From Chrysaora quinquecirrha (taxonomy: Eukaryota > Cnidaria > Scyphozoa > Semaeostomeae > Pelagiidae), in NCBI GenBank assembly GCA_014526335.1, contig JACTAT010000223.1, positions 124,001 through 188,000 of the forward strand: DNA of 64,000 nt, in the 5' to 3' direction. Positions 26,987 through 61,731 of the stretch are shown piece after piece (position 1 is the first letter of the stretch; each line of letters starts with the position of its first letter). The notes below the pieces were generated by a model. The model worked only from the letters and a program-made list of their open reading frames with translations. It had not been told where the DNA came from and searched no databases. Both the position numbers and the translations under genes were made by a program.

Positions 26987-27015
26987 AAAGATACATGTTT
27001 TGTTAGGTACTTATG

Positions 27016-27380
27016 TATGGAGTTACACCGTGGACAAAAATCGATGCCCTCAAATGATGTCGTAAATCGTGGATTGAATTGTGATAGTCAGACGATATCG
27101 TAAAGCAAGATTGGGGTCATGCAGATCATGATATCATTACTCATGGATTGAATGATGAAGTTGAGAAGATCGTGAATGTTAGAATATCGTCTCGCATGGA
27201 TGGAGTCATCAATTCCAGAACACGATATCGTGAATATTAGAACACGATATCATTAATAATACACAATGTCACCAAACTAAAATCATGACTTGATTACCGT
27301 TTCATCATTTCTATCATGAATGATTTAATGTGATTCTTACTTTGTTGCACATCATCTCAACATTTTTTCCTGGACGGGGG
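27016..27380 (+). repeat. HI-1 left terminal inverted repeat
   Basis: Reverse complement of 34162-34527. Contains repeated GATATC-centred palindromes (ACGATATCGT, ATGATATCAT, CACGATATCGTG, CACGATATCATT), which may be transposase-binding sites. Confidence 0.95.
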
Positions 27381-27636
27381 TTGTGCAACATAAAACAGAC
27401 AAACTCGGAAAAGAAAGGGAAAGTGGCCTCAGGGGCGATTTACCATGGACAGATGGGACAAACGAATCCTTCATTGGGGCGATGGGGCGACTCCGAATAT
27501 ACTTTTTGAGGACTTTTCCTGGGTGGTTGCGTTACGGGGCGTCTTTCAAGGGCAATTTGAAGGGAGACCTTTTTAGGACTAGGCTACACCACTCATATCC
27601 TGTGACCACTCGAACTTCGTTTTCGTGCTGAGCAAA

Positions 27637-29133
27637 ATGGCAACTCCTCAAGCAACTCCTCAAGAAAACATTCGGGAATTTATTATCTCTGTTTTAAGGG
27701 AGATTACTCACAACCTCGAGGATTTTAACCAGTGGTCAGATACAAATTTAATCGATTACTCTGCCTACAAGCTGCAGCAAGTATTAATACTGTGTTTGCA
27801 ATGTAGGGCAAGATCAGACCATTTTGTGGGTGATGACGTGATTTTTGCCCTTGTCAGAGCACATGATTTTCTCGAAGAGAGCTTTAATAACGCTGATGGT
27901 AACACTGCAACTGTACAAACAAGTGGCACAATTGGAAGACCATGGATAGAAATTCCTAAAGAGACACTAAAGTTGTATCTGCGCTATGGTTTCACATATT
28001 CGAGGATCGCTACCATATTTGGTGTAAGCTCAAAAACCATCAGAAGAAGAGTTGATTTGTTTAATCTGTCTGATGAAGTTAAGAAGTATGCTGAATTGAG
28101 TGATGAAGATCTTGTTGAGATAGTTAAAGATATATCGAGGCATTTTCCAAATTGCGGGATACGGCGAATGGTAGGATTTTTGAAAGCAAGAGGATTGATG
28201 GTACAATGGCGCAGGGTTCGATCCGCAATGTGGCAGGCAGATCCTGATGGCCTGATCTTAAGAGCTATACAGTTGAATACGGTTTACAGACGGCATTACT
28301 ACGTTCCAGGGTCACTAGCACTTTGGCACCATGACGGAAATCACAAACTTATTAGATGGAGGTTCGTTATCCACGGCTGCGTAGACGGGTACTCCAGGAA
28401 AATTATGTATCTTCGTTGTGCAACTAATAACAAAGCCCAAACTGTGCTTCATTTATTCTTGGAAGCTGCCCAGAAATACGGACTTCCGTCAAGGGTTAGA
28501 GGAGACCAAGGTGTGGAAAACGTAGATGTCGCATCCTATATGTTTAGTCACCCTCTTAGGGGCCCTGGAAGAGGCAGCTATATTTCCGGCAAGAGTTGTC
28601 ACAACCAAAGAATAGAGCGGTTTTGGCGCGACCTCTTCCATGGCTGCCTATTTCTGTTTTATTACATTTTTTGTTACCTCGAGGAGAATGGCTATTTAAT
28701 GATTGACGAGGAGGCTGATTTATTCTGCCTCGAGTACGTTTTTTTGCCACGAATAAACAAACTCTTGGAAATGTTCTTGGAAGGGTACGACAACCACCCG
28801 ATCAGAAGTGAATCGAACATGAGTCCGAACCAGCTATGGCTCTATGGTCTACATCAACACGTTCCACCAGAGCAAACAAGCAGCGAAACAAACTGGAGTG
28901 TTTATGGTGTAGACTGGGAAGGTCCACTACCGTCCAATAACTATAACAGAGTCGAGGAAGATGGTTCAGCTATTGTTGTTCCCACACTAAACAGTCCTAA
29001 CACAAACGGTTATGGAGAAGTCCTTAGTCGGGCTTTAGATCCATTGTCGGATTCTGAGTCCCATGGTATTGACTTGTTCTTGAACGCCAAAGACTTGCTA
29101 CGGCAGTTTTCTGCACAAAACTTTAACACTTAA
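27637..29133 (+). CDS. HI-1 DDE integrase-type transposase, intact
   Basis: The start chosen is ATG 27637 (context AAAATGG), giving 498 residues without interruption. An N-terminal helical region is followed by a helix-turn-helix at about residues 120-150 (YGFTYSRIATIFGVSSKTIRRR) and a second HTH-like segment near 170-205 (GIRRMVGFLKARGLMVQWRRVR), as in IS3/retroviral-like integrases. The RNase-H-fold core has Asp233 (HHDGNHKLIRW), VDGYSR, Asp290 (VRGDQGVEN) and Glu327 (NQRIERFWRD), with 36 residues between the second Asp and the Glu. The C-terminus is acidic with an LDPLSDSESHGID motif shared with HI-2. It should cut and join the element ends. Unlike HI-2 and HI-3 it has no intron before the first catalytic Asp. 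The HECT gene converges from the right. Confidence 0.93.
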   Translation: MATPQATPQENIREFIISVLREITHNLEDFNQWSDTNLIDYSAYKLQQVLILCLQCRARSDHFVGDDVIFALVRAHDFLEESFNNADGNTATVQTSGTIGRPWIEIPKETLKLYLRYGFTYSRIATIFGVSSKTIRRRVDLFNLSDEVKKYAELSDEDLVEIVKDISRHFPNCGIRRMVGFLKARGLMVQWRRVRSAMWQADPDGLILRAIQLNTVYRRHYYVPGSLALWHHDGNHKLIRWRFVIHGCVDGYSRKIMYLRCATNNKAQTVLHLFLEAAQKYGLPSRVRGDQGVENVDVASYMFSHPLRGPGRGSYISGKSCHNQRIERFWRDLFHGCLFLFYYIFCYLEENGYLMIDEEADLFCLEYVFLPRINKLLEMFLEGYDNHPIRSESNMSPNQLWLYGLHQHVPPEQTSSETNWSVYGVDWEGPLPSNNYNRVEEDGSAIVVPTLNSPNTNGYGEVLSRALDPLSDSESHGIDLFLNAKDLLRQFSAQNFNT

Positions 29134-29989
29134 CTAGCTAGGTACAGATGTGTAAAGCAAGAAACATGTTTTAATCATATTTCAATTCATACTTCTGAGT
29201 ACGAGTAACAACATAACAAAACTTGTTAAGAGAATAAAAAAAAAAAACAACATTGACAATCATTTCACTACAGTGAACGTATTGATTTAGCAACAAAACT
29301 TCTGAAAAAAAACAACAAACAAGGTAATACAACTTTAAAACAAAAAGCATTTTATGTAAAACAATGCGATTTCAGCAAATGAGGGTCGTATAGGGGGGGG
29401 GGGGTCCTTGTTCCCCTGTTCCCTTAGAAAATTATAATTTGTTCCATTGAGATTTGTGGAATTTTCAGAGTGTTCCCTGAAAAGTATGTGCAAAATGCTC
29501 CCTTGTTCCCCTAACTTCATGCAAATGTTCCCTGTTCCCTAAGACATTTTGGGGCTTGTTCCCATGTTCCCAAGAACCCCTATACGACCCTGCAAATGAT
29601 ATGTAAACATCACACGAAAGAATCTTTCAAGAAAGAATCTTTAATGTAGAAGACATGAACGTCGGCCAAATATGAACAACAATTGAAATTTGCATTTATA
29701 GCAAGATACAGCATATGATGTTTTTAAGACAATGTGCAAATTAGTGTGCAACATTAAAATCTTAAATACATTAAAATCTTAAAATCTTAAATACTGTGCA
29801 TATGCATAACATTTTGCTAGTTGTTTCAGGTAATCAAGAAAAATTCTTAGACAACATGTAACTAGGAAACAATGCCGACACTTCTCCCCCACATGAAAAT
29901 TTCTTTCTTATTAAACATAACGAAACAATATAAGTCATCACTTCTAACTTCTACGTACCGTTGATGTTCAAGGTTGCTGTTACATAAGT
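29134..29989. other. HI-1 convergent 3' interval
   Basis: Tail-to-tail non-coding interval between the transposase stop and the HECT stop, holding the MITE at 29382-29591. No further gene seen. Confidence 0.6.
29382..29591. mobile_element. 210-bp MITE with 15-bp perfect inverted ends
   Basis: Starts AGGGTCGTATAGGGG and ends CCCCTATACGACCCT, flanked by GCAAATG at 29375-29381 and 29592-29598. The interior is rich in the motif GTTCCC/TTCCCT. The 7-bp duplication (8 bp if the adjacent A is counted) would suit a hAT-like or related mobiliser. Non-coding. Confidence 0.88.
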
Positions 29990-30816
29990 TCAGGGATTCG
30001 GAAAGCCAAATGCTTCAAATTTTAAGACTGTTGTCATTGCACTGGAGAATTCATCCTCAGTGTTATGAACTGTAGGCAGGCGTAGAATGGACAGACATGC
30101 TGTAGCTGTTGGCAGTTTTTGAGCACCAATACCATCTGCCAAAAATCGAATTTGAAACTTCTTAGTAAGTCCTGCTGCTACAGGATATTTGTTTCCAGAC
30201 CAAAACTGTAGCAATGTTTTCATTCGTGTCCCACAAGGAAGATCATCTGTCAGATGAGGCTGTGAAAGATAAGAATAGAGCCAATCCAAGGCTTGTTGTT
30301 CACGATCACTCTCTGGTGCAACATCACACACTGCTTTCAAGTCATCGACTGAGAACTCTCTTCGCAAAAACTCATTGTAACAGAGAATTTCCTTGATGAA
30401 TGCAGCATGCTTCTTTGCATAATCAAGGAAACCAAGTGCATCAAGCCCTTGCCAATCTCTCCAATTTCTTCACGACGAGATGAGACAACTTCATTATAAA
30501 TCAAATCTTGGATCAACAGATTTTTATTAATGCTGTTGATGCTTGCTGATGCTGGCCAGTGACAGCTGCCTATCAGTACCCAGAAAACATCTTTATTTTC
30601 ATTCTCAAACAGTAAACTTTGAATTTCTTCCTCTGTCTTGGCTTTATCTAACTCTTCTATAAGATCATGCAGTGCTTCTGTTGCAGCATTCAATGGCACA
30701 TGATGCTTTGACAGAGATGTAGATGCAGTTTCTTTACTTTCTCCTGTGAGGGAGTCCACAATACTAGGTGCCAAGGGTGGTATGGAGTAAAGTGGACCAC
30801 CCTGTAATATAACATG

Positions 30817-31813
30817 CAGGGGCGCAACTAGGAATTTTGGAGGGCAGGGGTTGTTGAGTCAAGAAAGGGCACAATGTACTGGAATGTATAAAGCGTATAA
30901 AGCCTGCCGCAGGCACGCAAGCAATGACCGTAGCCATATTTTTCCTCGTCATTAAGGCTTGAAATACTTTTTCTTTCCATAAGGATATCAGCAAGGTCGT
31001 AAATCCTTTGTTCATGTTCAACATTTTCATGAAGGCTGGTAGTGCTTAGAGTGTCCTCTTCACAATCAACAGCATCGGAAAGAAACTCTGTTCGTTCAGG
31101 ACTTTTATCTATCTCCTCGACTGCATCTTTACCTTTTTCTTCTTGTACAACCTTAAAATAAATTTGTATATCATTTTATATTTGGGATCTATGTGGTTTT
31201 CAATTGGAATTTAAAACTTTTTCGAAATTTTGCTAATGCTGGGGTAAACCACGGGTACACGCATTTTTATGTCATGTTTACAAAGTGCACCATTTCTATT
31301 GACATTTTACGTTGCGTTTTATTAATGATCTATTAAGGGATATAAATTCATCAATTTGATAAGGCAAAAACATACCTCGCCCTCGCCACAAAGAGTATCG
31401 ATTTCATGGTTAGGCTCAGGCCCAGAACTTCTGCTTTCCTCCACACAGGGTTTCTTCGCAAATGACAACTTCGTTTGCCCTTTTGCGTTTGCAACACGAC
31501 GAAGATCTCCCCTCTTGCGCTTTGTAGTTGGCATTTTTAAATATTTTGCTATATTCGTGCTAAATTTACCGTTTTGTTTTGTAAAATCATCAGATACACA
31601 GAGTACTCATTAGTAGATAGCCATATGGCGTCAGCAGATGAGAAGGCGCCAAACAGCTTGCGCACGCGCAATTCTCAACTGCCGCTGCGATGTGCCATAG
31701 TTAATTTGTAGCGACAGTTCTGATGAAAATAGGGCAAAATTGCTTCTTTGTCAAAAAGGGCAGGGGTTGCAACCCCCACAACCCCCCCCCCCCCCCCCTA
31801 AGATGCGCCCCTG
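30817..31813. mobile_element. 997-bp hAT-like insertion in the HI-1 HECT gene
   Basis: Ends are CAGGGGCGCA and TGCGCCCCTG, flanked by ACATG at 30812-30816 and 31814-31818. Removing it with one ACATG copy restores the HECT frame as IVHVILQGGP. The CAGGGGCG end and a remnant transposase N-terminus at 31534 suggest a hAT deletion derivative; a 5-bp duplication is unusual for classic hAT (8 bp) but known for a hAT subgroup. A G/C homopolymer lies at about 31782-31798 near one end. Confidence 0.88.
31322..31534 (-). pseudogene. hAT-type transposase N-terminal remnant
   Basis: ATG 31534 opens a basic leader (MPTTKRKRGDLRRVANAKG) followed by QTKLSF, reminiscent of the basic/TTF-type starts of hAT transposases. 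Coding potential continues in pieces toward 30900, but the catalytic part is absent. It lies inside the 997-bp insertion and is best seen as what was left after internal deletion. Confidence 0.45.
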
Positions 31814-34161
31814 ACATGGACAATAATCATTCCCAAGATGCGAAAGAGAAAAAGTTTGGATGAATCCTTTACTGGCACAAGCCTCCACTCGTCACCTTCA
31901 AATAACTTTTTTTGTGCCTCTGCCATCAAGAGTTGGAAAAATTCATTTCTCATTGCCCCTCCATCCAGACCCTCTTCATCTTTAAAAGTTACTTCAAGAT
32001 TCTTTGCTAATCCACTGGGATCACCAACTTTGCGTTTGTAGTATTTTAGTGAATCAAGCCATATAGAGTCACGGGAAACTGTGATTTCTTCAAATCCAGG
32101 AACCTTTGTCTTTCCAATGAAATCTGACAGGAACATTAGCAAATTAGATGGACTTTAACTTGGGGCGAACTCTTGCCTATATCTGTGACCAGTGGAAGTT
32201 CCGGCAATTCACTGCAACCAATATCAGTCAGGTCCGCAAGGGTGTTTGCTGCATCTTCCACAGATGTTGCACTTGCTATGCACTCATCTAGTTGCTGCTT
32301 TGTAGCATCTGGAAAAAGGTCCTGTAGTCGAAACTTCCAGTTGTCTTCTTGCTGTCCTTTTGCTGCAGTGGACAATGTACTTGTTGAAGGAAGTGTTTGA
32401 TTGCTAGACAATTGTTGATTGATACTCTTCATTGAGTTCACTTTGGAAACCAACTCCTCCCCATCTGAGTCTTCAAGATATCCATCATCTTCATCACTTT
32501 TGGATTGTTCAGCTAATTCAGAACAATTAGCAATGTGACCTCGTATCAGACTGATAGGTATATTTCTATGGAAATGCTGACACTCAGAATTTACACCCTC
32601 TTCAACATTGATGGGTATATGTGTCATGGAGAGATTACTCTGAATTGGCCGAATATAGATAATAGTACCAGCACCAGTACTTTCTTTTATATGCTCAATT
32701 GTATAACCTCTTGACGACAATGGAATAACTGTCAAAGGACATTGTTTACCCCCACGTGCTGCTTTAAGGAACTCAAATGCCCCTCCTTGAGACTTTAACT
32801 TGGGATACACAATTTCCAATTTGTTACGGACCCCAGCATGATCCATTGTCTTACTCTCAAAGGTTATCCGTTTCTTTCCGAGACCCGCAAGTTGCAGATC
32901 ATTCACCCGATTGAAAGCAGGAACATGAGATTCTGATGTTTTAGCTAAGAGGCAGAAATCTCGTGTGCAGGTTTCTTTGTGAGGGTTGAAGGAATTGTTT
33001 TTTCTTTGTTTCTTTGCTGGTGGATTGAATCTTCTTCCACCACCACCCATGCTTGGAAAAGCATTCCTACAAAGAAAAAAATGATCTCAATTTTTATTAC
33101 TGATTCAAATCAAATCTTATTTTAAAAAACCGGTTATTAGAAGAAGAAAGCATTAGAATTGATGATACATTGTCTCCACATTTGCAGTTCAGATGGGATA
33201 AGCCAGGATTAGCCATAGTAGGAATGGTAGATTAGGCTTAAACAACATTGAAACATATGAAAACAAACATCAGAAATAAAGGAGGTTCCAATAGTAAAAT
33301 AGAAAATAAAATGTAGTTTTTAAATTAATTAAGTCTTGCTGTTCTTCTTTAACCAAATGTGTTGCAAACGATTAGACTTGAGAAGCCTGTTGATAAATTT
33401 TGGATGTTTCCAAAAATCATAGTAGGGCTAGTTTTTCAACACAAGAAAACCCCTTGGGATGGGAGGGTACCTACTATGTGCTGTATGTGCTACCCATAAT
33501 GGGTGGATATTTTGCTCTTAAATTCTCTAAACATAAAATAAATTCAACATACCATCACTATCAGCATTTTCAAATTACAAAACTACCTGTCTATCAAAAT
33601 TTCTCCGAATACAGTATCCAACGAAAAGAACAACGAGGATTTAGGCCTAAACAACTCTCAAGTTTGGAAGTGTGACATGCCAATTTAAACGTACCTGAAA
33701 TCTCTTGCAATTGCTGCTGAATGTGAAATCTGAGTTCTTGAGGTAAATAAACCAAACCGCGTGGCATCTGGAGCATGACTAGAACTTGGAGCAAAAGTAG
33801 AAGTAGGACAAGGAGCACCAGTAGACGCATAAGTGGTAGGGCTGGGAGCATACGTGGAACTATTAGTTCTGCTGCTGGTGGAAGCCTCCAGCTCTCTGCT
33901 TTCGGTCGTCTCGTTTCTGTTGCTAGATGAACCAGCAATATTTCGATTTCTATTATTGCCCTCCAAACGCTGCAAAGCTGAGCGTAAAATGTCGGCAACT
34001 TCCTCCGCTTTTCTACTCTCCATCACCAAGATACCCAGATCACAGCTCAAGGACGAGATGAGATTGACAATCACATCTAGGACAGCAAGACCTGCTGACC
34101 GACCACGTGTACTAAAACAACACAACCACTGAATAGGAGGGGTTGCTGTGACGCAACATAT

Positions 34162-34527
34162 CCCCCGTCCAGGAAAAAAATGTTGAGATGATGTGCAACA
34201 AAGTAAGAATCACATTAAATCATTCATGATAGAAATGATGAAACGGTAATCAAGTCATGATTTTAGTTTGGTGACATTGTGTATTATTAATGATATCGTG
34301 TTCTAATATTCACGATATCGTGTTCTGGAATTGATGACTCCATCCATGCGAGACGATATTCTAACATTCACGATCTTCTCAAATTCATCATTCAATCCAT
34401 GAGTAATGATATCATGATCTGCATGACGCCAATCTTGCTTTACGATATCGTCTGACTATCACGATTCAATCCACGATTTACGACATCATTTGAGTGCATC
34501 GATTTTTGTCCACGGTGTAACTCCATA
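34162..34527 (-). repeat. HI-1 right terminal inverted repeat
   Basis: Mate of 27016-27380, almost identical. The HECT gene start lies 139 bp inside its inner edge. Confidence 0.95.
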
Positions 34528-39950: not shown

Positions 39951-40053
39951 TGAGTGTAAAACATGCTTGTGTGCAAACTTTAATGAAGGATATGGTTCAA
40001 TGCCCTTTCTCATTTGTTCATTGTGGCAGCCATAACTTGAATCTAGTCATAAA
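39951..40053 (+). pseudogene. hAT-type transposase fragment, left half (split by HI-2)
   Basis: Reads VKHACVQTLMKDM, then CPFSFVHCGSHNLNLVIN, the 'HCxxHxLNL' signature of hAT/DUF4371-type transposases. The frame continues directly at 48022 once HI-2 and one CATAAA copy are removed. Sequence left of 39951 is too decayed to read. Confidence 0.75.
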
Positions 40054-40523
40054 TATGGCGCGCCAAAAGCAGCAAAAATACTTGTTAGAAATAAGAGCTG
40101 CTTGTTTAAATTTTTAAATACTTATTAGACTTTTGTGATACATATTTTTTATGGAAAACTAAAGTTTTTTTCGACTTGAGTAATTGAAGTCATAGGAACC
40201 TTCCTCTTCTTTTTAAAATCACGTACTCTGCATATTTTTTGGTGATCCCTTTGTTTTCTGAGATACCAATTATACTTTTTTCTAGAAGTTATTAATTTTT
40301 TAGATACTTCTTTTTTAAATACTTATTTTTCTCAATATTTATTTTTTTCGATACTTATTTTTTTCAATACTTATTTTTTTCGATACTTCTTTTTTTAAAT
40401 ACTTATTTTTCTCGATACTTATTTTTTTAAATACTTATTTTTTTCGATACTTCTTTTTTCGATACTTCTTTTTTCGATACTTCTTTTTCGATACTTCTCT
40501 CTTTTTCGATACGAGGCTCCCGC
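40054..40523 (+). repeat. HI-2 left terminal inverted repeat
   Basis: The inner half is a tandem array of a 15-19-bp unit around TCGATACTTATTTTT / AAATACTTATTTTT (about 40300-40515). The outer half is unique sequence starting with an AscI-like palindrome GGCGCGCC. Confidence 0.95.
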
Positions 40524-40574
40524 ACAAATCAAAATGAAATAGCAAACAAAACATGGCCGATCTTGTTGGCGTGC

Positions 40575-42484: not shown

Positions 42485-42771
42485 AACAGAACACAACAAA
42501 TAATATTTTTGATTAAAGTATTCATAGCTTAGTACTGAGATCACATGCTGAGATTGGCAATCTGCCAATATACATATAAATAACTAAAAATAAGTTAACT
42601 ACAGGGCCCTGAGTGTCTCCGTTACGCCACTGTTTTCTTTTTGAGTCTTATCAAATGATATAAAATAACAAAACAGTGTTCAGCAAAGCAAAATAAATTT
42701 TCCGAATCGATTCAGTCTTTAATGAGTTTAGCTCTTTAGCTCTTTCCTGTTCATCGGATATAATTATTTTC
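42485..42771. other. HI-2 convergent 3' interval
   Basis: Short non-coding gap between the two stops; AATAAA at 42692-42697 may serve as polyadenylation signal for the transposase transcript. Confidence 0.5.
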
Positions 42772-47472: not shown

Positions 47473-47540
47473 GTTTGCTGTTCAGTTGATTTGGGGTGCA
47501 TGTGGTTGCAGGGCATTGAAGGCGCAGGCGCATGGGAATT

Positions 47541-48015
47541 GGCGGGAGCCTCGTATCGAAAAAGAGAGAAGTATCGAAAAAAAGAAGTATCGAAAAAAAG
47601 AAGTATCGAAAAAAAGAAGTATCGAAAAAAATAAGTATTTAAAAAAATAAGTATCGAGAAAAATAAGTATTTAAAAAAAGAAGTATCGAAAAAAATAAGT
47701 ATTGAAAAAAATAAGTATCGAAAAAAATAAGTATTGAGAAAAATAAGTATTTAAAAAAGAAGTATCTAAAAAATTAATAACTTCTAGAAAAAAGTATAAT
47801 TGGTATCTCAGAAAACAAAGGGATCACCAAAAAATATGCAGAGTACGTGATTTTAAAAAGAAGAGGAAGGTTCCTATGACTTCAATTACTCAAGTGGAAA
47901 AAAACTTTAGTTTTCCATAAAAAATATGTATCACAAAAGTCTAATAAGTATTTAAAAGTTTAAACAAGCAGCTCTTATTTCTAACAAGTATTTTTGCTGC
48001 TTTTGGCGCGCCATA
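47541..48015 (-). repeat. HI-2 right terminal inverted repeat
   Basis: Mate of 40054-40523, with the same TCGATACTT tandem array in reverse; the number of units differs slightly between the ends. Confidence 0.95.
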
Positions 48016-48021
48016 CATAAA

Positions 48022-50479: not shown

Positions 50480-51022
50480 TATGGCACGCTGTTGCGGCCA
50501 AAAATAACAATAAATTGTGTGTCGATTTAATAAAAAAATTAAACGCCAAATTATTTTTTTGTGTATATACCTCGAAACATTTGTGTATACATGATTTAAA
50601 TTTTGAGTGACATAGTAAATATTCTTGTGTGTACACGTGCATAGTAAAACTTGTGGGTCTGTTATGTCAAAGATCTGAGTGCTAAAATATTTTTAGTGAA
50701 CATGTTTTAAACCTTTGTGACTGTAGAAATTAAAACCTGAGTCAACTTAAGGTTCGTGTGTGTTATTATAATATTTGTGTGCGTTGGCTTTCATGATTTC
50801 TGCGTGTCAGAAGCAAAAAACTTGTGTGTGTATTCAATTTCGTGTGTGTGTGTGTGTAGTGTCTTTTGTGTGTGTATCAAATTTTAGAGCACTGTGGTTT
50901 CGTTTTTAATTCGATACATCTATCATCTGGATCCCTGTCCTCAGTCCACATGTTTGCATTCGTTGAAAGGACCATCTTTCTTTTAACCATGGACGAAGAA
51001 AGAAGAGAACGGTATCTTGTCG
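50480..51022 (+). repeat. HI-3 left terminal inverted repeat
   Basis: Matches the reverse complement of 61218-61731 with roughly ten substitutions. GTGTGT-rich tracts and TGTGTATA motifs recur. The HECT start codon (ATG 50989) lies inside it. Confidence 0.93.
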
Positions 51023-51214
51023 AAGATTTAATCCGCGCTGCTAATATAATTCAGTCCTTGAACAGAAGGACATCGCAGTCTGAACAAGATCGTGCAAGGC
51101 AAATCAGTACAACAGAATATATTGGCAATGCGTTTCCAACAGCAAGAAGTCGCAGTTCAACTTCAAGCATGTCAAAGCCATCCAAAACAACTTCTATGCC
51201 AGGGCCTAAGTTGT
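50989..51214 (+). pseudogene. HI-3 HECT gene, first exon
   Basis: ATG 50989 (context ACCATGG) opens MDEERRERYLVEDLIRAANI and a Ser/Arg-rich tail, corresponding to the short charged and Ser-rich N-termini of the HI-1 and HI-2 ligases. The frame stops at 51212-51214; no clear GT donor is visible near its end, so splicing to the exon at 57281 may have been damaged by the nested insertion. The first eleven codons are part of the terminal inverted repeat. Confidence 0.6.
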
Positions 51215-51990
51215 AGTTCTTCCTGAATTTTTGCAATGATATCGTCATTACTATCTTCAATAGTACAGTATGTTGCATTATTTAACATATGTATCGTTGT
51301 ATATGTATATGTATATGTATGCTTGATGTGGTGGGTTATTATGCTTGTTGTGGTGGTGTTTTTTGCGTACTTTGGTGGATAAGCACTGCTGTGGTGGGTT
51401 ATTATGCTTGATGCGGTGGCGTTCTTTTGCTGTCTGTGGTTGATACTCACTATTTGGGTGGTTTTTTCCCTTCAAATTGTTTGGATATGGCTGTGCTAAA
51501 AACATATCCCCAGAACATACAGATAGTCTTATTTTTTTCTGAGCCTGGTTTTTAGAAAGAAAACGTTGCATATTATGAATTTTCAAAGATTGTAAACAAT
51601 CTCAGATAAATTGAAAAAATACTTTCGATGTGGTTCGGGCCTGCCCGCATTATTCCAAACGTGTTAAGTATTAGAGAAGAGGAATATTTTTAGAATAAAA
51701 ACCAAGGCTAAGCAATAAGACTTTCTGTATGTTTTTGGGATATGCTTTTAGCTAGGACTGTCATCAATTTCCTACAGTTGGTCAAATTTTCAAATTTCGA
51801 ATTTAAAAGGTCAAATCATCTGTTTGTAGTTGGTCGTCCGCCATTACAGTGTTCCAAACAGGATAGTAACAAATCGAATACCTGTGTGCGTAAGTGCCTA
51901 CTACCACTGCTTTCTGACTTTTAACTCACAATTCTCGTTGCTTCTTGTATCGAAGGCTAATTTGGATTGATTTGCAGAGAAGGTAAAGAA
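51215..51990. other. Non-coding interval with short repeats
   Basis: Holds a TATATG microsatellite (51297-51322) and a ~64-bp imperfect direct repeat around GTGGTGGGTTATTATGCTTG (51329 and 51390). It should contain the left end of the nested ISL2EU-like element, which I could not define. Confidence 0.5.
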
Positions 51991-53490
51991 ATGGTGCTTT
52001 GTTTGGTGGTTAATTGTGGTAGAAAATCGGGAAAACGTGGTAAAAAGACAGATAAGGAAGAAGACAAAGGGCCTAACCAGAAGGAGGACGAAGAAAAATC
52101 CGGCCTGAGTTTTTCTAGAGTTCCCACCATCATTACAAATGAGGGTGAGGCTATGGAAGAACTAACAAGAGAGAGAAGAAGACGGTGGATTTCGGCATTA
52201 AGTAGAGATGATTTGACGGAAAAGAAGCTAGCAAATGATCGAGTTTGTAACCTACATTTTGTGTCTGGCAGGGCTGCCAAGAACTGGGACAGATACAGTG
52301 TTGACTGGGTACCAACTCTAAGGCTTGGACACTCAAAGAAACAAAAGGACCATTCTCATGTTGAAGAAAGAGCTAGAAGGGTTGCAAGCAGACGTAAACG
52401 TGCAAATGATAGTTGCAAACATGAAATTGAAGAGAAGCGAATGAGGGAAGATGACAGCATGCCCATTGAAATCCAAGATGGTCCGATTCCAAAAACGGGA
52501 GAGATAGCATCGAATGATCCTGGACAATGCTTTCAACCCGCTGAAGAAATTCGATTTTGTGATGCTGAAACAAATACTGATGAGCTCAACTATTTGTTCC
52601 AAGGCCTAGCCATAAAAACAGAACCATTCACACAAGAGTGCTTCATTGATGATGATGCCAAAGTGAGGTTCTACACTGGACTGCCCTCATATGATATCCT
52701 GCAGACAACTTTTGATTTTGTAAAGCCTGATGTTGATGGAAAATCAACTACATTGCAGAGCTTCCAGCAGTTCATACTAGTTTTGATGAAATTGAGGTTA
52801 AATGTACCCCATCAGGATCTTGCCTACAGATTTTGTATATCTGCACCAACAGTTTCAAGAATATTCAAGAAATGGATAAACATTCTTGATAGGAAATTAA
52901 GTCCAATTATTTCATGGCCTGAGAGGGAAGATTTATGGCGCACTATGCCCAAATGCTTTCAGTATTCTTTTGATAAGAGGGTAACAGTGATCATTGACTG
53001 TTTTGAAGTGTTTATTGAAAGACCATCAAATCTGTTGGCAAGAGCACAGACATATTCCAATTATAAGAGCCATAATACAATTAAAGTGCTGATTGGTATT
53101 ACTCCACAGGGTACTATCAGTTTTGTATCTGAAGCATGGGGTGGGCGTACTTCAGACAAGTTTCTGACGGATAATTGTGGAATTCTGAGGCTACTTAAAC
53201 AAGGAGACTTGGTGATGGCAGATAGGGGCTTCATGATACAAGAAAGTTTGATCTTCTATCAAGCAAAATTGGCTATCCCAGCATTTACACGTGGTAAAGA
53301 TCAACTTGACCCCATTGATGTTGAGAAAACTAGGGGTATTGCAAACGTAAGGATACATGTGGAACGAGTGATAGGACTGTTGTGCAGAAAGTACAAAATC
53401 CTGCAGAGTACACTACCAATTGACTATCTTATTTGTTCAAGTGGAAGTCAAAGCCCTCTTATTGATAAAATATTACGAGTGACAGTTTGA
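51991..53490 (+). CDS. THAP-domain DDE transposase, ISL2EU-like, intact
   Basis: ATG 51991 gives 499 residues. Residues 1-110 form a THAP zinc finger ([15 protein letters not shown], then [15 protein letters not shown], and a C-terminal DWVPTL), a C2CH DNA-binding module. A basic linker and a helical region with an HTH ([19 protein letters not shown]) follow. The DDE_4-type core has Asp336 ([13 protein letters not shown]), Asp411 ([10 protein letters not shown]) and Glu458 ([11 protein letters not shown]) with the AWGGRTSD motif between. The last residues end shortly after the Glu helix. No stop or shift, so it could still be active although its partner gene is broken. Two-base upstream context suggests a 3' splice site (TTTGCAG at 51971-51977) before the ATG. 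Confidence 0.92.
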
Positions 53491-53835
53491 CTAAACAAAA
53501 ACAGCCAAACATATTTTATTTTATTTTTTAAGAATCTTGAGAATGGGAAATAAAGAGTATTTTTGAAAATTTTTATGCAAACTTACTGTAGTTTCAAACA
53601 CCTGATGTTGAAGTTTGGGGAAAACTTGGAAAGCAACTATTAGATGAGGGGTCTACAGTATAATGTGTCTGCAATAAATTGCAGTCTAATATGTCTATGG
53701 ACAGATCATAATATTTTTTGACCCTTTCCCTCATTTATAAAGAATTTCTCGATATGAAGTGAGAATCATCAAATTTTTTCATATTTGTACAAAAATATGG
53801 GAAGGAAAGTTAAAATGTTTCATCTCAATGTTCTT

Positions 53836-54282
53836 CAAAGTTTCAAAATTGCGATGAACAGCGGAATCATTTTCGGGCATACTTAAAAGCTTTTTTCGTC
53901 TGACACAGCGAGGATTTTTTCAGAATCATTGGCAAAGCAAGATCTTTGTTTCACTTAGGAGTTTTGGAATCTGTCTACATCAAAACCAAAAGGCCGGTTC
54001 TGTGTAGACAGAAAGAGTTCGTTTTCTCACTTGGGCTCTTCAAATAATTCATTGGTCCTCCCGCTGTATCCGACCAGCTGATTGGTGTTTAAAACACAAT
54101 GCCAATTCAGCTTTTCGTTCTTTCTGATTGGTGCATTTCGAGCCGCATCTGGGTATAAATTCCGCCTTAGTCTATTGTTTCGGTCTGTTTCTGACGTTCA
54201 TACTCTGAGGAGTGTCAGACGAAAAAAGCTTTTAAGTATGCCCGAAAATGATTCCGCTGTTCATCGCAATTTTGAAATTTTG
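53836..54282. repeat. Foldback with 71-bp arms
   Basis: 53836-53906 is the reverse complement of 54212-54282 with one mismatch. The 305-bp loop is GC-richer than the surroundings. No duplication of flanking bases found, so whether it moved as a unit is open. Confidence 0.92.
54045..54165 (+). promoter_or_regulatory. Promoter-like cluster: four CCAAT boxes and a TATA box
   Basis: ATTGG at 54051, 54081 and 54127 and CCAAT at 54102 precede TATAAA at 54154-54159, spacing typical of a strong animal promoter. A transcript would run rightward through the foldback arm and open with ATG 54238 (MPENDSAVHRNFEIL), antisense to the end of the nuclease gene. Function not demonstrated. Confidence 0.45.
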
Positions 54283-54364
54283 TACAACTCAAAGACTGTT
54301 CTTCAAAGTATAAGATGTGCTCAAACCTTTAACAAAAACAAGTTTTTGAATAAAAAAGCAGTCT

Positions 54365-57120
54365 TCACATTGTTGGGAACAATTCCATCTTTCCAACTTT
54401 CAAACATTTAAACAAATGTTTTCTCAACTGAGCCACATCAAATTCAACTGTTTCTGGTGGTATATAGTTTACTAGACAGGTTGCAAAGGCTGTTGCAAAG
54501 ACACCACAGTCATACCCATTTTCTTGTTGCTAGACTGAAACAACATTAATTCCTTTATAGATATCTGCTCCAATAAGGCTCTTTATTTGTTCCTCGATTT
54601 CATCTGATACAACATGGTTATACAGGCTGTCATACAAGCTAACCATCCCTGGTAAACATCCAATTGAGCTTGTGCATACCCAGTGACTGTTTCCAGTGTG
54701 AAGTATCTGGACAAACTCCCCTCCAACTATGTCAAAGTTTCTAGATGGTCCTAAGGTTGGCCTTTGAAAGCCCTCAATAGCTGGATTACTGTTTCTTAGG
54801 TAAACATGTACCTGGTGAATTATATCACAGTCAAGCCAACCTTTTGGAGACATAACCAATTCAAAATGTATTTCACTTAATGTTTCTAATTGTGCAAAAC
54901 GCTCTGCTTGTCCAGTTGTTTCTTTGGTCATCCATTTCCAGGTCTGAACTATCCCTGTTTAAGATAGAAATTTCCTTCACTCTAGACTGCTGCGGCAGTG
55001 TTACCTTTCCAACTTTTGACTCTGGCTGACTGTGTGGATTTGCTTTGCACTTGTCACATTGCCAGGTGGTCTTACTGTTGTTTGGTTTCCTTTTGTAGCC
55101 CAGACAACTAATGTGGAAGAATTTTCCATTTTCACAAAAGGGATTATGGCATTCAATTATTTTCTCATCAATTTTTGCCTTTTGTTGGCAAATGCAAACA
55201 CTTTCCAGTGCTAGTGCTTTTGTTGTGGTAATGTCTTTTGTTTTGGGCTGCGTTTTTCTTTTGAACTCAGGTAGCCTTTGACAGTGGGGACAATACCAAT
55301 TATTGGAAACTTGTGTCACTTTAAGACACACAGGATGATACAATGAAATTGGACAGTCTGTATTCTGACATTTCACTGTAGGCTCCCTGTTTCTTCAGCA
55401 CAAAACATACTTTCATTTCACCAATCTTTTGTGGTTTTGACAAGTAACACTTGCGTGTGTACCATCTACCAAGAATTTCTGGGAGTACGCAATATTGCCA
55501 AAATTGAGACAGCTTTGGCAAAACTCTGTCCCAGTGTTCTTGGTCAGGGGTTATCCTTTCTTGAAGGAAAGCAGACTGTGATGCTGCAAAACCAAAGACA
55601 ACAAAATCACAAAATCGAAGCTCTGTGGTGAACATCTGCTGTTGTACTTGGTAATAATATTGGTGGTTTCTTTTCAGAATCACTTTACCATCTAGATCTT
55701 TCGTTAAACAGCTGCTAGGTTTTCCCAAGTATCCATCCATATCAATTCCGTCAATACAATAAGGACATTTAACTTCCCCACATCCAATTCCACAGCAGTC
55801 ACATGAGGATAAAAAATCAGGTGTTGCATGAATGAAAGTGCTGTGTTTGTTGATAAACATGCCACATTCGATTGCTTTGTAATTCACATGCTTCTTCTTC
55901 ATATCAATATCAAAAACGCTTAATTGCTGATTCCTCGTGTTGACATCCATATTCAGTGGCGGCATTAGTGAACTTGAAAATTTCTGGGTAGCAGATTGAT
56001 TTTATTAGTGATTGAGATGGCTGGCTGGGATCTGTGTGGCTTGCAGACTTACTCATTGATGCACCAATTCTTCCAGCTCGATGATGGAAAAATCCACTGC
56101 CCTTGGCCTGGCTTCTTGTATCCAGCTCAATTTGTCTTGCATCTTCATCTGAAATTTTAGCATGGATGTCTGAGCAGGCTTTTATGAGATCATGGTACTC
56201 ATAGGCAAGGTACTTCTCATCAAAAAGCTCAGAGATTGTTGCAATGCTACTGCTCCTGGAAATAAATGAATTGGCATAAGGGTATACAAGACTCAGTGCT
56301 GCAGGCTTTACTTTGCATTTACTCAGTGCTTCATGAAAGGATTTTAGGCCTATATCATCCTCACTTCTGACAGGGGTGTCTCCTTTTGTTGAACCATAAT
56401 GTCTGAGGGCCACATTCATTCTTTCCTCTGGATCTTGATTAACATTGCTGACTGCTTGATCTAAGTCCTTCTTTAGTTTCTTTGCTGATGTAAAGTTAAT
56501 ATCTCTGACAGGAGAATATGATATTTCTTTTACATAAGAAGGGAGAATCCAGGTACATTTTACTTGGGTACAGGCTAATTTTCCATTCAGTCTTGTCCAT
56601 ACTTCAAGATAAGATAGCACGCTTGCAACATGAGAACAGCATTCTCCTAGACCAGCCATGCAGCCAATGCAATGTGCAGAAAGAATAGTCCCATCATTCT
56701 CTGTAATTATCCAGACTTGCACTGGGTTGACTTTCATCCTTTGCGAATGCCGCAGTTTCCCCAGGACAACAAATCTTTTATCATTGACTATCTTACCTTG
56801 TACCGAGGTGATGAAGCCGGATACCATTTGATTGTATGCCTGCAAACTTCTGAAAGCCTTGAATTGGGTCTTCGTGTAATAACTTGTATCGAGTACGAGA
56901 TACGATAGCAAGTTGGTGGATTCTACAGGAGGCAAACATTCTGGATCGAAACTGCTTTCTGGAACAGCTGATCAACGCCGATATACGAGATCTTTTCCCC
57001 GTAACGCTTGAAAACATGACTTTTTAGCTTCTTGGCATAGTCGGACAACAATATCGTAAACTTTTCTTCAATTTTGGACTTCGAAATGACAGATAAATCT
57101 TTGTTGCTATGTGTCGCCAT
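54365..57120 (-). pseudogene. SWIM finger - YqaJ nuclease - two PHD fingers - Ulp1-like protease, frameshifted
   Basis: ATG 57120. Read across shifts near 56955, 55918, 55370 and 54930 and a TAG at 54532, the product has, in order: a SWIM zinc finger (CIGCMAGLGECCSHVASVL, near 56660-56605); a YqaJ-type exonuclease (RAGRIGASMSKSA, GCQHEESAI, HATPDFLSSCDCCGIGCGEVKCPYC, then HQYYYQVQQQM); two PHD fingers (CQNTDCPISLYHPVCLKV ... WYCPHC; VCICQQKAK ... HISCLGY ... WQCDKC); and a C48/Ulp1-like cysteine protease with His (NSHWVC), Asp (SLYDSLYN) and Cys (QQENGYDCGVFATAF). YqaJ nucleases belong to the lambda-exonuclease fold. Partner of the transposase at 51991. Five lesions make it non-functional here. 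Confidence 0.8.
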
Positions 57121-57280
57121 TGAACATGTGGTATAATAAAAAGAAAAGTGGAACACCAACATGGCGGAAGCCTCGTTTTGAATATTGTCGTGACGTCACG
57201 TGAAAACGGTCTATATGTTTTGACATGTAGGCATAACTTGTGAATAGCAAAGGAACTGAATTCAATCCTTTTGTTTTTAG

Positions 57281-59117
57281 CAGCTTTCCGCTCAACACAA
57301 AATGCGGTGTTCCAGTCTAATCATTTCGGTAGCCAACGATTTCAGGGCCGCCAATGTGGGGGGACAAAGCGCAAAGCTGCTGAGCAAGGACACAGGAAGA
57401 AACAGCCTCCTGAAAAAATTTGGATAAAAGACTTAATTTTGCTACCTAGTCCAAAAATTGTCAAGGTACCAAAAGGGCCTGCACGGGAGACCCTGTACAC
57501 TGATGGCTTTGTGGTCTCAGGCTTCAAATTGCACTCCACCTCTACGGAGAATGAATTAAAAAAAGTCATCGAAGAACAATTTGCGTCCGTGTTGAGTGGT
57601 GTAACAGCACCAGTGAAATTTACATTTGTATGTGCAGTTGAACGGTCAATTGTGGCAATAAAGAGCAATGAAGAAATTACAGGAGATGTACTGAAACATC
57701 TTTCAGGGAACAGGGACCGTCCAATATACATCTGCTCCTCCGAAGATCTGATGCACCTGATAAGTTGTGCCGAGCATTTCAGTCTAGAAGAAGGCGATGA
57801 AGACGATGATCGGGAAGAAGATGAATTGCCACCCTTTTCAACATTTCTTGAAAAACATCCAAATCCTACTCCTGCCACACAAGGAACACAAAAATTGATC
57901 GATGACTATTTTCAAGATGAAAACAAAGTGGAAATAGAACAAAGTGACCCAGCCTTCACAGCTACAACTTTTGATTCCCACCCAAGCATTGTAGATCTTG
58001 GACAAAATGAAGCCAACACTATATGTCTAATTTGCGAGAAAGTCGTCGCATTCAGGATGATAGAGGAACATGTAGAACTATGCTTAGAGTCTAAACAGTC
58101 ACAGTCAAAAGGCACTTTTTCCAAAGAAAACCAGGCATTTGCATCATTGAAAGAACATTTGTCTAGTATGAGAAACGAATTTGCCTGCGGAAAGGAGCCT
58201 GTGAGTTTTGTCATGCGCAGAAGCCATGTTGTAAGAGACGTGCTAAAAAAGATGGAGTTGTTCTTCAAAAATGATCCACTTAGACCAATACCAGTTGAAT
58301 TCGTAGGGGAAGCGGCCGTGGACGAGGGAGGGCCACTCCGAGAATTATTCTCTTCTTTTTATGATGGGATTGTACAATTTCTCATGTATGGCCAAGAGAA
58401 ACGGTACACGTTTCAACATGATATACATAAGCTAGAGAATAATTTGTTCTTTCTTTTCGGAAAGTTCACCGCGCTTGGGTTCCTCATGGGAGCGGCAGGG
58501 CCGCATAATTTTTGCGAGCCGTTGGCTTCCTACATTTTAATGACAGGGTCTTCAAGATTTTTGTCGAAGGATGTTCCTTGTTATGATGCTAAACAAAAGG
58601 TTGAAAAAATAGAAGCAAGCCAAACGCAAGCAGATTTGGATGTGATCGTCGAGAATTTCGAAGAGCGCTTTGAGGCTGGATACAACAAGGCCTTCGTAAC
58701 ACTAGCTGACAAAGATGATTTGGTAAAAAAGGTTGCCATTGGTGAAGATGAAGCCTTAAAGAATAAGGAACTAGATATTGCTTATAATTGGTGCAACTTT
58801 TTAGATGAATTGGAACAGCATGCTGTCAATGATGTGATTGTTGCAGATTTTATGTCCGAAGGAAATGAAGAAAGAAAAGTGTCCATGAAGCTAGAAGATG
58901 TTCTTCTATTTCTAACCGGATCAAAATTTCTTCCTGCTATAAGTTTTGGCTCTGGGAAGATCGTTTTTGATCACAATGCCCAACATGAAAGAAGGATCTC
59001 AGTCAGCCATGTACTTTGAGGGTAAGTTTTCCTGTGAATAAAAGATACTTGGAAGAATCATTTACAGAAAATGTAATGGAAGATATACTATCAGCACCTG
59101 ATTTTGGCTTGATTTAA
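57281..59117 (+). pseudogene. HI-3 HECT E3 ubiquitin ligase, main exon, one frameshift
   Basis: Starts at a 3' splice site (TTTTTAG ending 57280). It contains KDLILLPSPKIVKVPKGPAR (the block shared with HI-2), an acidic stretch, a UBZ/Rad18-like finger (CLICEKVV ... HVELC) near 58024-58085, and the HECT domain from VEFVGEAAVDEGGPLRELF onward, through FGKFTALGFLMG and FEERFEAGYNKAF. The main frame ends at 59019, but the family's C-terminus continues in the +1 frame: CTLRVSFPVNKRYLEES and FGLI, stop at 59115-59117. A single missing base just before the catalytic Cys codon (59010-59012) explains this. Otherwise 580 codons are open, so decay looks recent. Confidence 0.87.
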
Positions 59118-59425
59118 AATATGGACAATATACTGATTACTTCTAATCATTTGAACCATTTTGACCTGAGAAACTAAAGAGATTTCTTATATGCTAGAAC
59201 AATAAGAACGAATTTCTTGAAATCGACTTATATTATTCTTATCGCGTTTTGTTTTCACCATTTTAGGAGTTTTTTGTTGCTAATATTGAAGAGTTTTGTG
59301 TTGAAAAGAGTGAATCCTTTCAGTGACGATGCCTGCTTGCAAGGATTCCAAAACGGCGAAGGCCGGAGCTGAAATTGAATTTGATAATGGCTATTTTTAC
59401 AAGATGATATGTCCGACAAATCTCG
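59118..59425. other. HI-3 convergent 3' interval
   Basis: Non-coding gap between the HECT stop and the transposase stop. A 39-codon frame at 59329 (MPACKDSKTAKAGAE) is noted without assigning it. Confidence 0.45.
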
Positions 59426-61123
59426 TCATTTCCTGTCATGTTCTTTGAATGGATGCCGTGGAATAACTACATTGTTATCTGTTTGTATTCCAGAGGGCGT
59501 GTTATCGTCAAGGTCGATCCCATACTGCAAAGGGTTGAATTGTTCTATGTTTATCATTTCTCTCACTGTATCGCCATCCAGTCGCTTGTATATATCTTCC
59601 ACCCACAACTGCATTTTTTGTCTTTGAATGCTCTGTCCTGAGTGGATGATTATTCCAATGAATTAGAAATGCCGTCAAAGCTTTGTTTAATCTAGGAATG
59701 AAAACAATTTGAAGCGCTAGTAAGTGCACTTCATTCAGAGGATCCAAGTCATCAATTTCTTCCATTTGGTAAAACAGGTCTCTGAAATGACCAACAACAT
59801 AATTTACAACATCCCGCCATAACCTGTCTACACGCTGATTGTGAACAGAGAGACCAGTAATGTGGGGAGCGGCTTCAGTACCATACTTTTCTACCATTAG
59901 TCTTGCGATGCCAATATTTTCCATTCCGTGATCAGACCGTACACTTCTTGGCCAGTAAAAATCCTCTGTAGACTGTGAGAATAGCTCAGCGACAGTATCC
60001 GAACAGTTATTGTGACATCCGTGGAGGTAGATTATTTGACGGGAATAGCCATCGATGCAGCCATGAATCACGATTCTCCAACGTATCAGTTTGTGATGGC
60101 TGTCTATATGCCTATTGGGAAATCGAAGGTGTAGAAAATCAATTCTACAAAGAGATATTCTATGCATACTCTTTCGCTATATTCTTACCTAGAGTCAACA
60201 AAACCAATGCCTTTACCCCCCGTTTACACGGGATCGTATCGGTGCGGATCCCATCTCTAACTGATACGGATAGGCCTTGCGTTTACACGGGACGTAAACC
60301 AGCGGTAATAAAAAACTTAAGTGCCAGCAATATATTAACAGAGTTGCAAGGCTGGATTTCGGGGGTTTCTAGTTCCATTCAATAACAATTGGCAGGATGA
60401 AATCCTTGGTGACCCTTGTTTGTGAATTTTTAGAATCAGTAAGACAAGACAAAATAGCATCAAATCATTGAGTTTTCACCACAAAGCATTTGCTCCTTCC
60501 ACCTGCTATTGTCTTCTCTTAAGATTTCTAAGTCTTCGTAGAATTTTACCAAGTGGGTCTACCCTAGTAATTGACTCCCGCAATCTTCTTCTTTGAATAC
60601 GAAGGCCTCTCGCTCTTAAGGCACCCGAAAGCAGCCTCTCTCCCACATTAGGAGATTCTGATAGTAGATCTGCTACTACTTCATCGATTTGACCATCCAA
60701 TAAAGGTGTAAACTCGTCCCTAATATCTAACTCCCTTCTCCTCTCTCTCAGCGTACGCTCTGATATCATGAGCATATCGTAAATCGCTTTCCAAGTGAAT
60801 CCAAGGCTTCTTAGACCTTTCACTTGTTCTGGGTCTACCAAGTAACGTGGTCGCCCTTTTTCGCCAGTGAACTTCTTAGGGCAATGAAAACCTGGTCTTT
60901 CTGGTGATGAAGATGTGGTCTGACGACTGTATTGGCAAAATAGGTGATTCAATGAATTACTTTTCCTTTGAAGGCATTCCTGCAAAGACGAGATACCATG
61001 AGGAAAATCGCCAGGCAAAACATAATAATCTAGAATTTCATCCAAAATTGATATTGTCCGGCGTATTTCTTCCATGGTTGTTTCCAGGTAACAGAATCGC
61101 TGCTCTAATGTCAAGCCAGGCAT
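59426..61123 (-). pseudogene. HI-3 DDE integrase-type transposase, mutated
   Basis: Exon 1 is 61123-60480 and exon 2 begins at 60111; the phase-2 GT-AG intron is at the same codon as in HI-2 (before the first catalytic Asp). Helix-turn-helix segments (FTWKAIYDMLMISERTLRERR; GERLLSGALRARGLRIQRRR) are intact. Lesions: a TAG at 60506-60508 where relatives have a sense codon, a Glu-to-Asp change at the third catalytic position (59826-59828, NQRVDRLWRD), and a one-base shift near 59620, after which the frame continues as QLWVEDIYKRLDGD to 59426. The first two Asp residues remain (60102-60104; 59931-59933). Dead as read. Confidence 0.88.
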
Positions 61124-61217
61124 TCCTGCGTTTTACATTAAAATTTTGGATTTCTCCGCAAGGTCCTTAGAAAATAACAAAATTTTTTTCTTAGAATGAT
61201 GACTGAATCGTGTTCTG

Positions 61218-61731
61218 CGACAAGATGCCGTTCTCTTCTTTCTTTGTCCGTGGTTAAAAGAAAGATGGTCCTTTCAACGAATGCAAACACGTGGACTGAG
61301 GACAGGGATCCAGATGATAGATGTATCGAATTACAAACGAAACCACAGCGCTCTAAAATTTGATACACACACAAAATACACTACACACACACACACACGA
61401 AATTGAATACACACACAAGTTTTTTGCTTCTGACACGCAGAAATCATGAAAACCAACGCACACAAATATTATAATAACACACACGAACCTTAAATTGACT
61501 CGAGTTTTAAATTCTACAGTCACAAAGGTTTAAAACATGTTCACTAAAAATATTTTAGCACTCAGATCTTTGACATAACAGACCCACAAGTTTTACTATG
61601 CACGTGTACACACAAGAATATTTACTATGTCACTCACAATTTAAATCATGTATACACAAATGTTTTGAGGTATATACACAAAAAAATGATTTGGCGTTTA
61701 ATTTTTTTATTAAATCGACACACAATTTATT
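61218..61731 (-). repeat. HI-3 right terminal inverted repeat, outer ~29 bp missing
   Basis: Mate of 50509-51022. At the position equivalent to the HECT start codon it reads ACG rather than ATG (change at 61250). Confidence 0.93.

What the first reader, a model, noticed from the sequence alone, without database searches (positions are those of the whole stretch)
27016..61731. Three DNA transposons that each pair an integrase-type transposase with a HECT ubiquitin ligase
HI-1, HI-2 and HI-3 share TATGG termini, long inverted repeats, 6-bp target duplications and two inward-facing genes (DDE integrase, HECT E3 ligase with a UBZ-like finger), although their end sequences and proteins have diverged strongly. 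Keeping the same pair in three diverged lineages argues that the ligase is a working part of the element, not passing cargo. This may also explain the many G2E3-like HECT genes annotated in invertebrate and fish genomes. The transposase looks IS3EU-like; I am not aware of a description of the HECT partner but cannot rule one out.
Basis: partly seen in the sequence, partly recalled or inferred. Interest (0 to 1): 0.93.

Follow-up and report, generated by a model that had tools for sequence, protein, structure and literature searches.

The report
Jumping genes carrying a ubiquitin ligase
In this genome, most of the examined members of one group of cut-and-paste jumping genes carry, besides the enzyme that moves them, a second conserved gene for a protein-tagging enzyme (a HECT ubiquitin ligase) that appears to be a working part of the element.

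Summary
HI-1 (27016-34527) and HI-2 (40054-48015) are complete TATGG..CCATA elements with 350-400 bp inverted repeats, 6-bp target duplications, and convergent transposase and HECT genes. HI-3 (50480-61731) has the same plan but lacks its right tip, so no duplication can be verified; both its genes are broken and another transposon sits inside it. Of 20 fetched best hits, 19 carry it, as do 3 of 3 loci that first looked HECT-less. A side lineage (11 of the 150) showed none. The genes diverged together (8 of 12 tree splits shared). Amino-acid change is constrained in both, HECT evolving faster, and the catalytic cysteine motif is kept. By termini, duplication and transposase these are IS3EU-type. 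No HECT partner turned up in the papers searchable here; Repbase and Dfam could not be searched. The ligase's target is unknown; host silencing or post-insertion repair is inferred.

The parts
27016..34527 (+). HI-1, complete IS3EU-type element, TATGG..CCATA, TSD CTTATG on both sides (27010-27015 and 34528-34533)
27016..27368 (+). HI-1 left TIR (349/353 identical to the right TIR 34175-34527)
34175..34527 (-). HI-1 right TIR
27583..29133 (+). HI-1 transposase, single open frame, D-56-D-36-E, PF24764 integrase core, weak HTH matches near residues 129-161
29990..33086 (-). HI-1 HECT gene in at least four open pieces (broken copy); C-lobe LPTATACLSILRLP with the catalytic Cys at about 30.1 kb; zinc finger lacks one Cys
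40054..48015 (+). HI-2, complete element, TSD CATAAA on both sides (40048-40053 and 48016-48021); TIRs 403/406 identical
40431..41345 (+). HI-2 transposase, first open stretch (N-terminal part)
41684..42484 (+). HI-2 transposase, second open stretch (integrase core)
45841..47481 (-). HI-2 HECT gene, first long open stretch (N-terminal domain, C2HC finger CPICHRLFGKTQIAQHADMC, start of HECT)
42775..43158 (-). HI-2 HECT gene, open stretch with the C-lobe and catalytic motif TSSTCSLSIVLP
50480..61731 (+). HI-3, degraded element with the same plan; right tip missing, TSD not verifiable; lies within a reverse transcriptase gene
57244..59016 (+). HI-3 HECT gene, long open stretch with C2HC finger CLICEKVVAFRMIEEHVELC; frame breaks at the catalytic motif
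60506..61132 (-). HI-3 transposase, N-terminal part
59508..60176 (-). HI-3 transposase, integrase core; catalytic E reads D (NQRVD)
51961..56971 (.). Unrelated transposon genes nested in HI-3: THAP + DDE_Tnp_4 transposase on +, YqaJ-like and PHD pieces on -

Best explanation
These are IS3EU/GingerRoot-type cut-and-paste DNA transposons whose usual second gene in this genome encodes a HECT ubiquitin ligase. Shown here by sequence: TIR-bounded units hold a DDE integrase-type transposase and a convergent HECT gene; the pair is common in this genome; the two genes diverge largely together under amino-acid constraint; the HECT profile and catalytic Cys motif are kept. Inferred: the transposase cuts and pastes the element with a 6-bp stagger, and the ligase, which carries a UBZ-like C2HC finger and in one relative a CUE domain, ubiquitinates a nuclear protein that limits transposition. 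My first choice of target is a host silencing or genome-defence factor at the element (about 0.4); second, the transposase-DNA complex or repair factors at the new insertion (about 0.3). The confidence below is for the ligase being a working part, not for the target.
For: Intact ends and duplications in HI-1 and HI-2 and in L012, L016, L021, L022, L024. Co-occurrence 107 of 150 against a random mean of 5.15, maximum 11 in 300 draws; divergent 2, same-strand downstream 2, same-strand upstream 6. 19 of 20 fetched best-hit loci; 3 of 3 apparent exceptions carry a diverged HECT. Co-divergence: 8 of 12 splits shared against a permuted mean of 0.25, maximum 3 of 2000; distance correlation 0.96 for 15 families. 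Constraint: in 8 between-family pairs synonymous differences are saturated (pS 0.76-0.88) while pN is 0.21-0.36 for transposase and 0.22-0.53 for HECT. HECT: profile to E6AP HECT (1c4z) E 1.1e-24 with the catalytic Cys aligned; Cys motif in 18 of 19 stitched rows that reach it. Other species: HECT and transposase relatives on contigs of identical length, in Rhopilema esculentum with close gene numbers (neighbourhood inferred).
Against: The transposase lineage of L036/L037 (11 of the 150 listed) has no HECT hit, and 2 of 2 fetched members show none in about 5 kb downstream. 146 of 268 partner-HECT clusters have no listed transposase nearby. Six of 11 TIR-paired fetched copies lack a perfect 6-bp TSD. 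Four of 12 splits differ between the two trees. HI-3 is broken and so is HI-1's HECT gene. One recent HECT pair has a ratio of 1.0. No ligase activity, expression or target is shown.
Confidence: 0.8

Rival explanations
1. The ligase is an internal tool of transposition: it ubiquitinates the transposase or the strand-transfer complex so that it is taken apart and the gaps are repaired, or it adjusts transposase dose.
For: Largely congruent trees of the two proteins (8 of 12 splits); C2HC finger CxxC-x11-HxxxC in 13 of 20 rows, which recalls the Rad18-type UBZ finger (likeness recalled; zf_UBZ reached only E 0.078 for P0001).
Against: Co-divergence is also expected from linkage alone. A transposase lineage without detected HECT exists, so the reaction may not always need it.
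Confidence: 0.3
2. The HECT gene is passenger cargo picked up once and carried along without function.
For: Some copies are broken (HI-1, HI-3); HECT-domain genes are also found widely in the genome.
Against: Saturated synonymous change with constrained amino-acid change, conserved catalytic motif, same position and orientation in 107 of 150 hits.
Confidence: 0.05
3. The HECT gene serves mainly the host (domesticated ligases) and sits beside transposase genes for other reasons.
For: 146 of 268 partner-HECT clusters have no listed transposase; relatives are annotated as ordinary or uncharacterized genes.
Against: In 13 units both genes lie between paired TATGG..CCATA TIRs (HI-1 and HI-2; 11 fetched loci), and nearly identical two-gene copies lie on different contigs (L012/L022, L025/L026).
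Confidence: 0.05

Closest known systems
IS3EU / GingerRoot superfamily (PMC10045372; passages and section 3.3 seen)
   Same: TA..TA termini, usually 6-bp TSD, DDE core related to IS3/IS481, no HHCC family called upstream of the core
   Different: The parts seen mention no second gene; here a HECT ligase gene is the usual partner
Fungal IS3EU with TET/JBP and alpha-kinase genes (PMC12730594; passages seen)
   Same: TAYGG..CCRTA ends, TIRs over 30 bp, 6-bp TSD; transposase and a protein-modifying enzyme gene in opposite orientations
   Different: Partner is an alpha-kinase (plus TET/JBP), not a HECT ligase; fungal hosts
DNA transposons with chromatin enzymes, e.g. HarbingerS with a SET methyltransferase (title seen in the reference list of PMC12730594 only)
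   Same: A transposon carrying an enzyme that may counter silencing
   Different: Other superfamily and other enzyme
Kolobok lineages with varied accessory nucleases and helicases (PMC9587614; passages seen)
   Same: One superfamily split into lineages by accessory gene
   Different: Accessories named there are nucleases, helicases and KolX; the transposase class differs
UBE3A/E6AP-type HECT E3 ligases
   Same: Whole HECT domain and catalytic Cys align
   Different: The match covers the HECT part only; the N-terminal half (own domain, C2HC finger, CUE in one relative) is not matched; encoded by a transposon

Membership tests
IS3EU/GingerRoot DNA transposons | TA..TA termini (TAYGG..CCRTA in fungal members) | tested here: met
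   TATGG..CCATA in HI-1 and HI-2 and in 11 of 20 fetched loci; HI-3 left end only; ends not found or degraded in the other 9
IS3EU/GingerRoot DNA transposons | usually 6-bp target duplication | tested here: met
   Perfect in HI-1, HI-2, L012, L016, L021, L022, L024; absent in L009, L010, L011, L025, L026; five bases offset by one in L027; not verifiable in HI-3
IS3EU/GingerRoot DNA transposons | DDE core related to IS3/IS481 transposases | tested here: met
   PF24764 and PF00665; for L016, NCBIfam IS481 E 5e-11 and IS3 E 3e-8, both far below their curated cut-offs; D-56/58-D-34/36-E spacing in 15 of 20 rows, one of them (HI-3) with D in place of E; L011 has spacing 61 at a stitched break; L021, L022, L023 and L027 not read in full by the pattern
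IS3EU/GingerRoot DNA transposons | no HHCC motif upstream of the core | tested here: inconclusive
   Pfam gives only HTH-type or sigma-factor-like matches upstream in HI-1 and no integrase zinc-binding family in any of the three; the motif itself was not scanned for
IS3EU/GingerRoot DNA transposons | transposase clusters with Repbase IS3EU in a tree | not testable with these tools
   No Repbase or Dfam sequences available
HECT E3 ubiquitin ligases | complete HECT domain by profile | tested here: met
   Profile A2 to 1c4z over positions 328-675, E 1.1e-24. Pfam HECT above cut-off in L021, L035, P0001, P0010 and P0009, P0011, P0012, P0017, P0022, P0038, P0046; below cut-off in L032; not reported for L016's and L033's single stretches, P0006, P0015, P0057 and P0059
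HECT E3 ubiquitin ligases | catalytic cysteine in the C-lobe | tested here: met
   18 of 19 stitched rows that reach the motif; in HI-3 the frame breaks there; L022's row ends before it
HECT E3 ubiquitin ligases | ubiquitin transfer activity | not testable with these tools
   needs biochemistry
G2E3 orthologues | N-terminal PHD/RING-type fingers (recalled) | tested here: not met
   No PHD family reported for the 18 proteins or pieces scanned; matches there are C2HC/UBZ-like fingers, one CUE and weak others

The most novel reading that the evidence does not exclude
A HECT ubiquitin ligase is a core gene of an animal-wide clade of IS3EU transposons, used by the element to destroy or re-mark host defence proteins or the transposition complex, and the source of large sets of HECT ligase genes annotated in cnidarian, other invertebrate and fish genomes.
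Probability: 0.4. Interest if true: 0.85.

Novelty: new variant of a known kind. Interest (0 to 1): 0.65.

Why it matters
Many DNA transposons are known for a transposase alone. A ubiquitin ligase kept as the usual second gene over deep divergence points to a protein-level manipulation of the host, or of the transposition complex, that can be tested by a single cysteine mutation. It would also give a simple origin for part of the HECT 'genes' in animal genome annotations, which should then be masked as transposon genes. Together with the alpha-kinase partner of fungal IS3EU (PMC12730594), it suggests that this superfamily may repeatedly pair its transposase with a protein-modifying enzyme.

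Tried and rejected
Passenger cargo: rejected because of constraint, co-divergence and gene order. G2E3 orthology: not supported. HECT-less copies as the norm: not borne out by the listed hits (107 of 150 paired). Three loci with intact-looking transposases that first looked HECT-less had a very diverged HECT, but the L036/L037 lineage has none within about 5 kb. L019 cannot be judged: other transposase pieces and an N stretch follow its transposase.

Led nowhere: no relative of the transposase in viral contigs (records of the window's own or a very near genome may be left out there). HI-1's last HECT piece alone found no solved structure.

Paper searches bearing on the HECT partner: 0 papers; 4; 13; 1,064 hold at least three terms, 25 listed, none of those 25 with 'HECT domain'; 3, 2 listed; 1; 0; 5; also IS3EU and GingerRoot. 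Opened: PMC10045372, PMC12730594, PMC9587614, PMC4255032 and PMC5638112, passages only (plus one section of PMC10045372); the others were seen as listings. None of what I saw describes a HECT-carrying IS3EU element. One fish study lists a G2E3 match among unclassified repeats (PMC5638112). Repbase and Dfam could not be searched, the library lacks most subscription journals, and the original GingerRoot paper did not appear.

Rows dropped: L017 and L028 were left out of the 20-row trees (fragmentary); L013, L019, L020 and L026 were not in the list given to them; L009, L010, L011, L022 and L027 were left out of the 15-family trees as near-copies. Of the HECT tables, 65 of 86 rows, 93 of 135, 112 of 126, 30 of 37, 48 of 67 and 61 of 85 were pasted into the tally, leaving out mostly further exons of genes already listed; this can only lower the count. 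The transposase table gave 150 listed rows of 151 matches (738 candidates, 150 scored). The random relocation took the largest hit coordinate as contig length.
Full report
What is in the window. HI-1 and HI-2 are complete elements: 27016-34527 and 40054-48015, TATGG..CCATA, flanked by CTTATG and CATAAA duplications, with TIR arms identical at 349/353 and 403/406 positions. HI-3 has 527-bp arms at 97%. It begins TATGG at 50480, but about 28 bp of its right tip are gone, so its duplication cannot be verified. It lies in a reverse transcriptase gene: the right flank matches RVT_1 profile positions 1-107 and the left flank 106-202. HI-3 also holds a nested transposon (THAP + DDE_Tnp_4 at 51961-53490, YqaJ-like and PHD pieces at 54873-56971; the ISL2EU label is recalled). 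Apart from the tips the three TIRs share no significant similarity.

The two genes. The transposases match the PF24764 integrase core at E 2e-73, 3e-76 and 2e-63; that of L016 also matches IS481 and IS3 models, far below their cut-offs. The triad is D-56-D-36-E in HI-1 and D-56-D-34-E in HI-2; HI-3 reads D for E. The HECT proteins of HI-1, HI-2 and HI-3 are only 18-23% identical to each other, while the transposases are 39-46% identical. Pfam recognises HECT in HI-1's C-terminal piece but gives no family for the long stretches of HI-2 and HI-3. A profile of 20 partner proteins, HI-3 among them, matches E6AP HECT over the whole domain at E 1.1e-24 with the catalytic Cys aligned. HI-2 matches HI-3 (E 1e-11) and the partner profile, and its C-lobe stretch carries TSSTCSLSIVLP. 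A C2HC finger CxxC-x11-HxxxC is present in 13 of 20 stitched rows; among the 7 without it are HI-1's window copy and the divergent L033-L035. One relative scores for CUE (P0038).

The window lies in a 328-Mb genome that could be searched by position; it is unnamed, and that it is an animal is inferred from its closest named relatives. Stretches of 10 kb (one of 6 kb) around 20 of the best HI-1-type transposase hits were fetched, so they are not a random sample: 19 of 20 have a HECT gene downstream on the opposite strand. The exception, L019, runs into other transposase pieces and Ns. In 11 of the 20 both genes lie between paired TATGG..CCATA repeats, and 5 of these 11 have a perfect 6-bp duplication (L012, L016, L021, L022, L024). 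For a wider count, the 150 listed PF24764 hits (738 candidates, so not all copies) were compared with HECT positions from six searches: 107 have a convergent HECT hit within 12 kb, against 2 divergent, 2 same-strand downstream and 6 same-strand upstream; random relocation gives a mean of 5.15 and a maximum of 11 in 300 draws. The count rose as more diverged HECT queries were added (79, 83, 99, 107), so it is a lower bound. Three loci chosen because they first looked HECT-less though their transposases looked intact (L033-L035) hold a diverged HECT.

Results against. A lineage around L036 (11 of the 150) shows no HECT hit, and 2 of 2 fetched members have none in about 5 kb downstream. It may be a HECT-less branch or a different unit. 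The other 32 unpaired hits were not resolved, apart from L019. Seen from the other side, 122 of 268 partner-HECT clusters have a listed transposase nearby (179 places). Six of 11 TIR-paired copies lack a perfect duplication, including three near-identical HI-1-type copies with perfect tips.

Selection and co-divergence. In eight comparisons between families, synonymous differences are saturated (pS 0.76-0.88), while nonsynonymous differences are 0.21-0.36 for the transposase and 0.22-0.53 for HECT, so HECT is constrained but mostly evolves faster. In twelve recent pairs the ratio, where defined, is 0.18-0.83, with one HECT pair at 1.0; the numbers are small. Trees of 15 family representatives share 8 of 12 splits (permuted mean 0.25, maximum 3 of 2000), with distance correlation 0.96; the permuted maximum is 0.894, because a few deep families dominate it. 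Four splits per tree differ, some with high local support, so rare swaps are not excluded. The catalytic Cys motif is present in 18 of 19 stitched HECT rows that reach it; in the exception, HI-3, the frame breaks there.

Other species. HECT relatives (51, 8) and transposase relatives (2256, of which 120 listed) were found. Named transposase hosts among the 120 include cnidarians (Rhopilema, Hydractinia, Clytia, Dendronephthya, Acropora, Porites, Montipora and others), hemichordates, a sponge and fish; the three HECT hits that show an organism name are cnidarian (Rhopilema, Oculina, Paramuricea). Comparing the tables by eye, six contig lengths occur in both (1861808, 15264025, 4392, 1605955, 5151, 10225), covering 7 of the 51 HECT entries and none of the 8; an eighth pair has neighbouring gene numbers (gene21006/gene21007). 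In Rhopilema the pair is LOC135686279/LOC135686290. That these pairs are neighbours is inferred, not seen. One HECT relative is annotated as a G2/M phase-specific E3 (P0006).

What it is and how it may work. By termini, duplication and transposase these are IS3EU/GingerRoot-type elements as described in PMC10045372 (passages and one section). Fungal IS3EU elements share TAYGG..CCRTA ends and carry an alpha-kinase gene opposite the transposase (PMC12730594, passages), a telling parallel. No HECT partner is described in what I saw of the papers searched; databases of repeats were out of reach. I take the ligase to be a working part (0.8). Its target is open: host silencing factors first (about 0.4), transposition complex or repair second (about 0.3), others after that. 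No activity has been shown.

Noticed in passing
L009, L010, L011 (own genome) and L025, L026: Copies with perfect or near-perfect TIR tips have no matching target duplication, while several other families do; recombination between copies, an odd insertion mode or assembly joins could explain it.
   Followed up: partly
L036 (C442:1209173) and L037 (C387:2549073), with nine further hits among the 150 listed: A diverged IS3EU-like transposase lineage, mostly at 43-54% identity, several with open frames, with no HECT hit nearby.
   Followed up: partly
window 51961-56971: A THAP + DDE_Tnp_4 transposase facing YqaJ-like and PHD-finger pieces, nested in HI-3 (looks ISL2EU-like, recalled).
   Followed up: partly
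window 49886-50692 and 61732-62649: The two halves of one reverse transcriptase domain flank HI-3; the element interrupted a retroelement.
   Followed up: partly
window 40311-40523 and 47542-47758: HI-2 inverted repeats hold arrays of roughly 16-bp repeats; some other families also show shifted self-matches in their TIRs.
   Followed up: no
window 12238-14649; 37077-37571: A long RVT_1 reading frame and a DDE_1 transposase piece lie outside the three elements.
   Followed up: no
L020, L022: Second transposase and HECT fragments lie beside the main element, so copies of this group cluster or nest.
   Followed up: no
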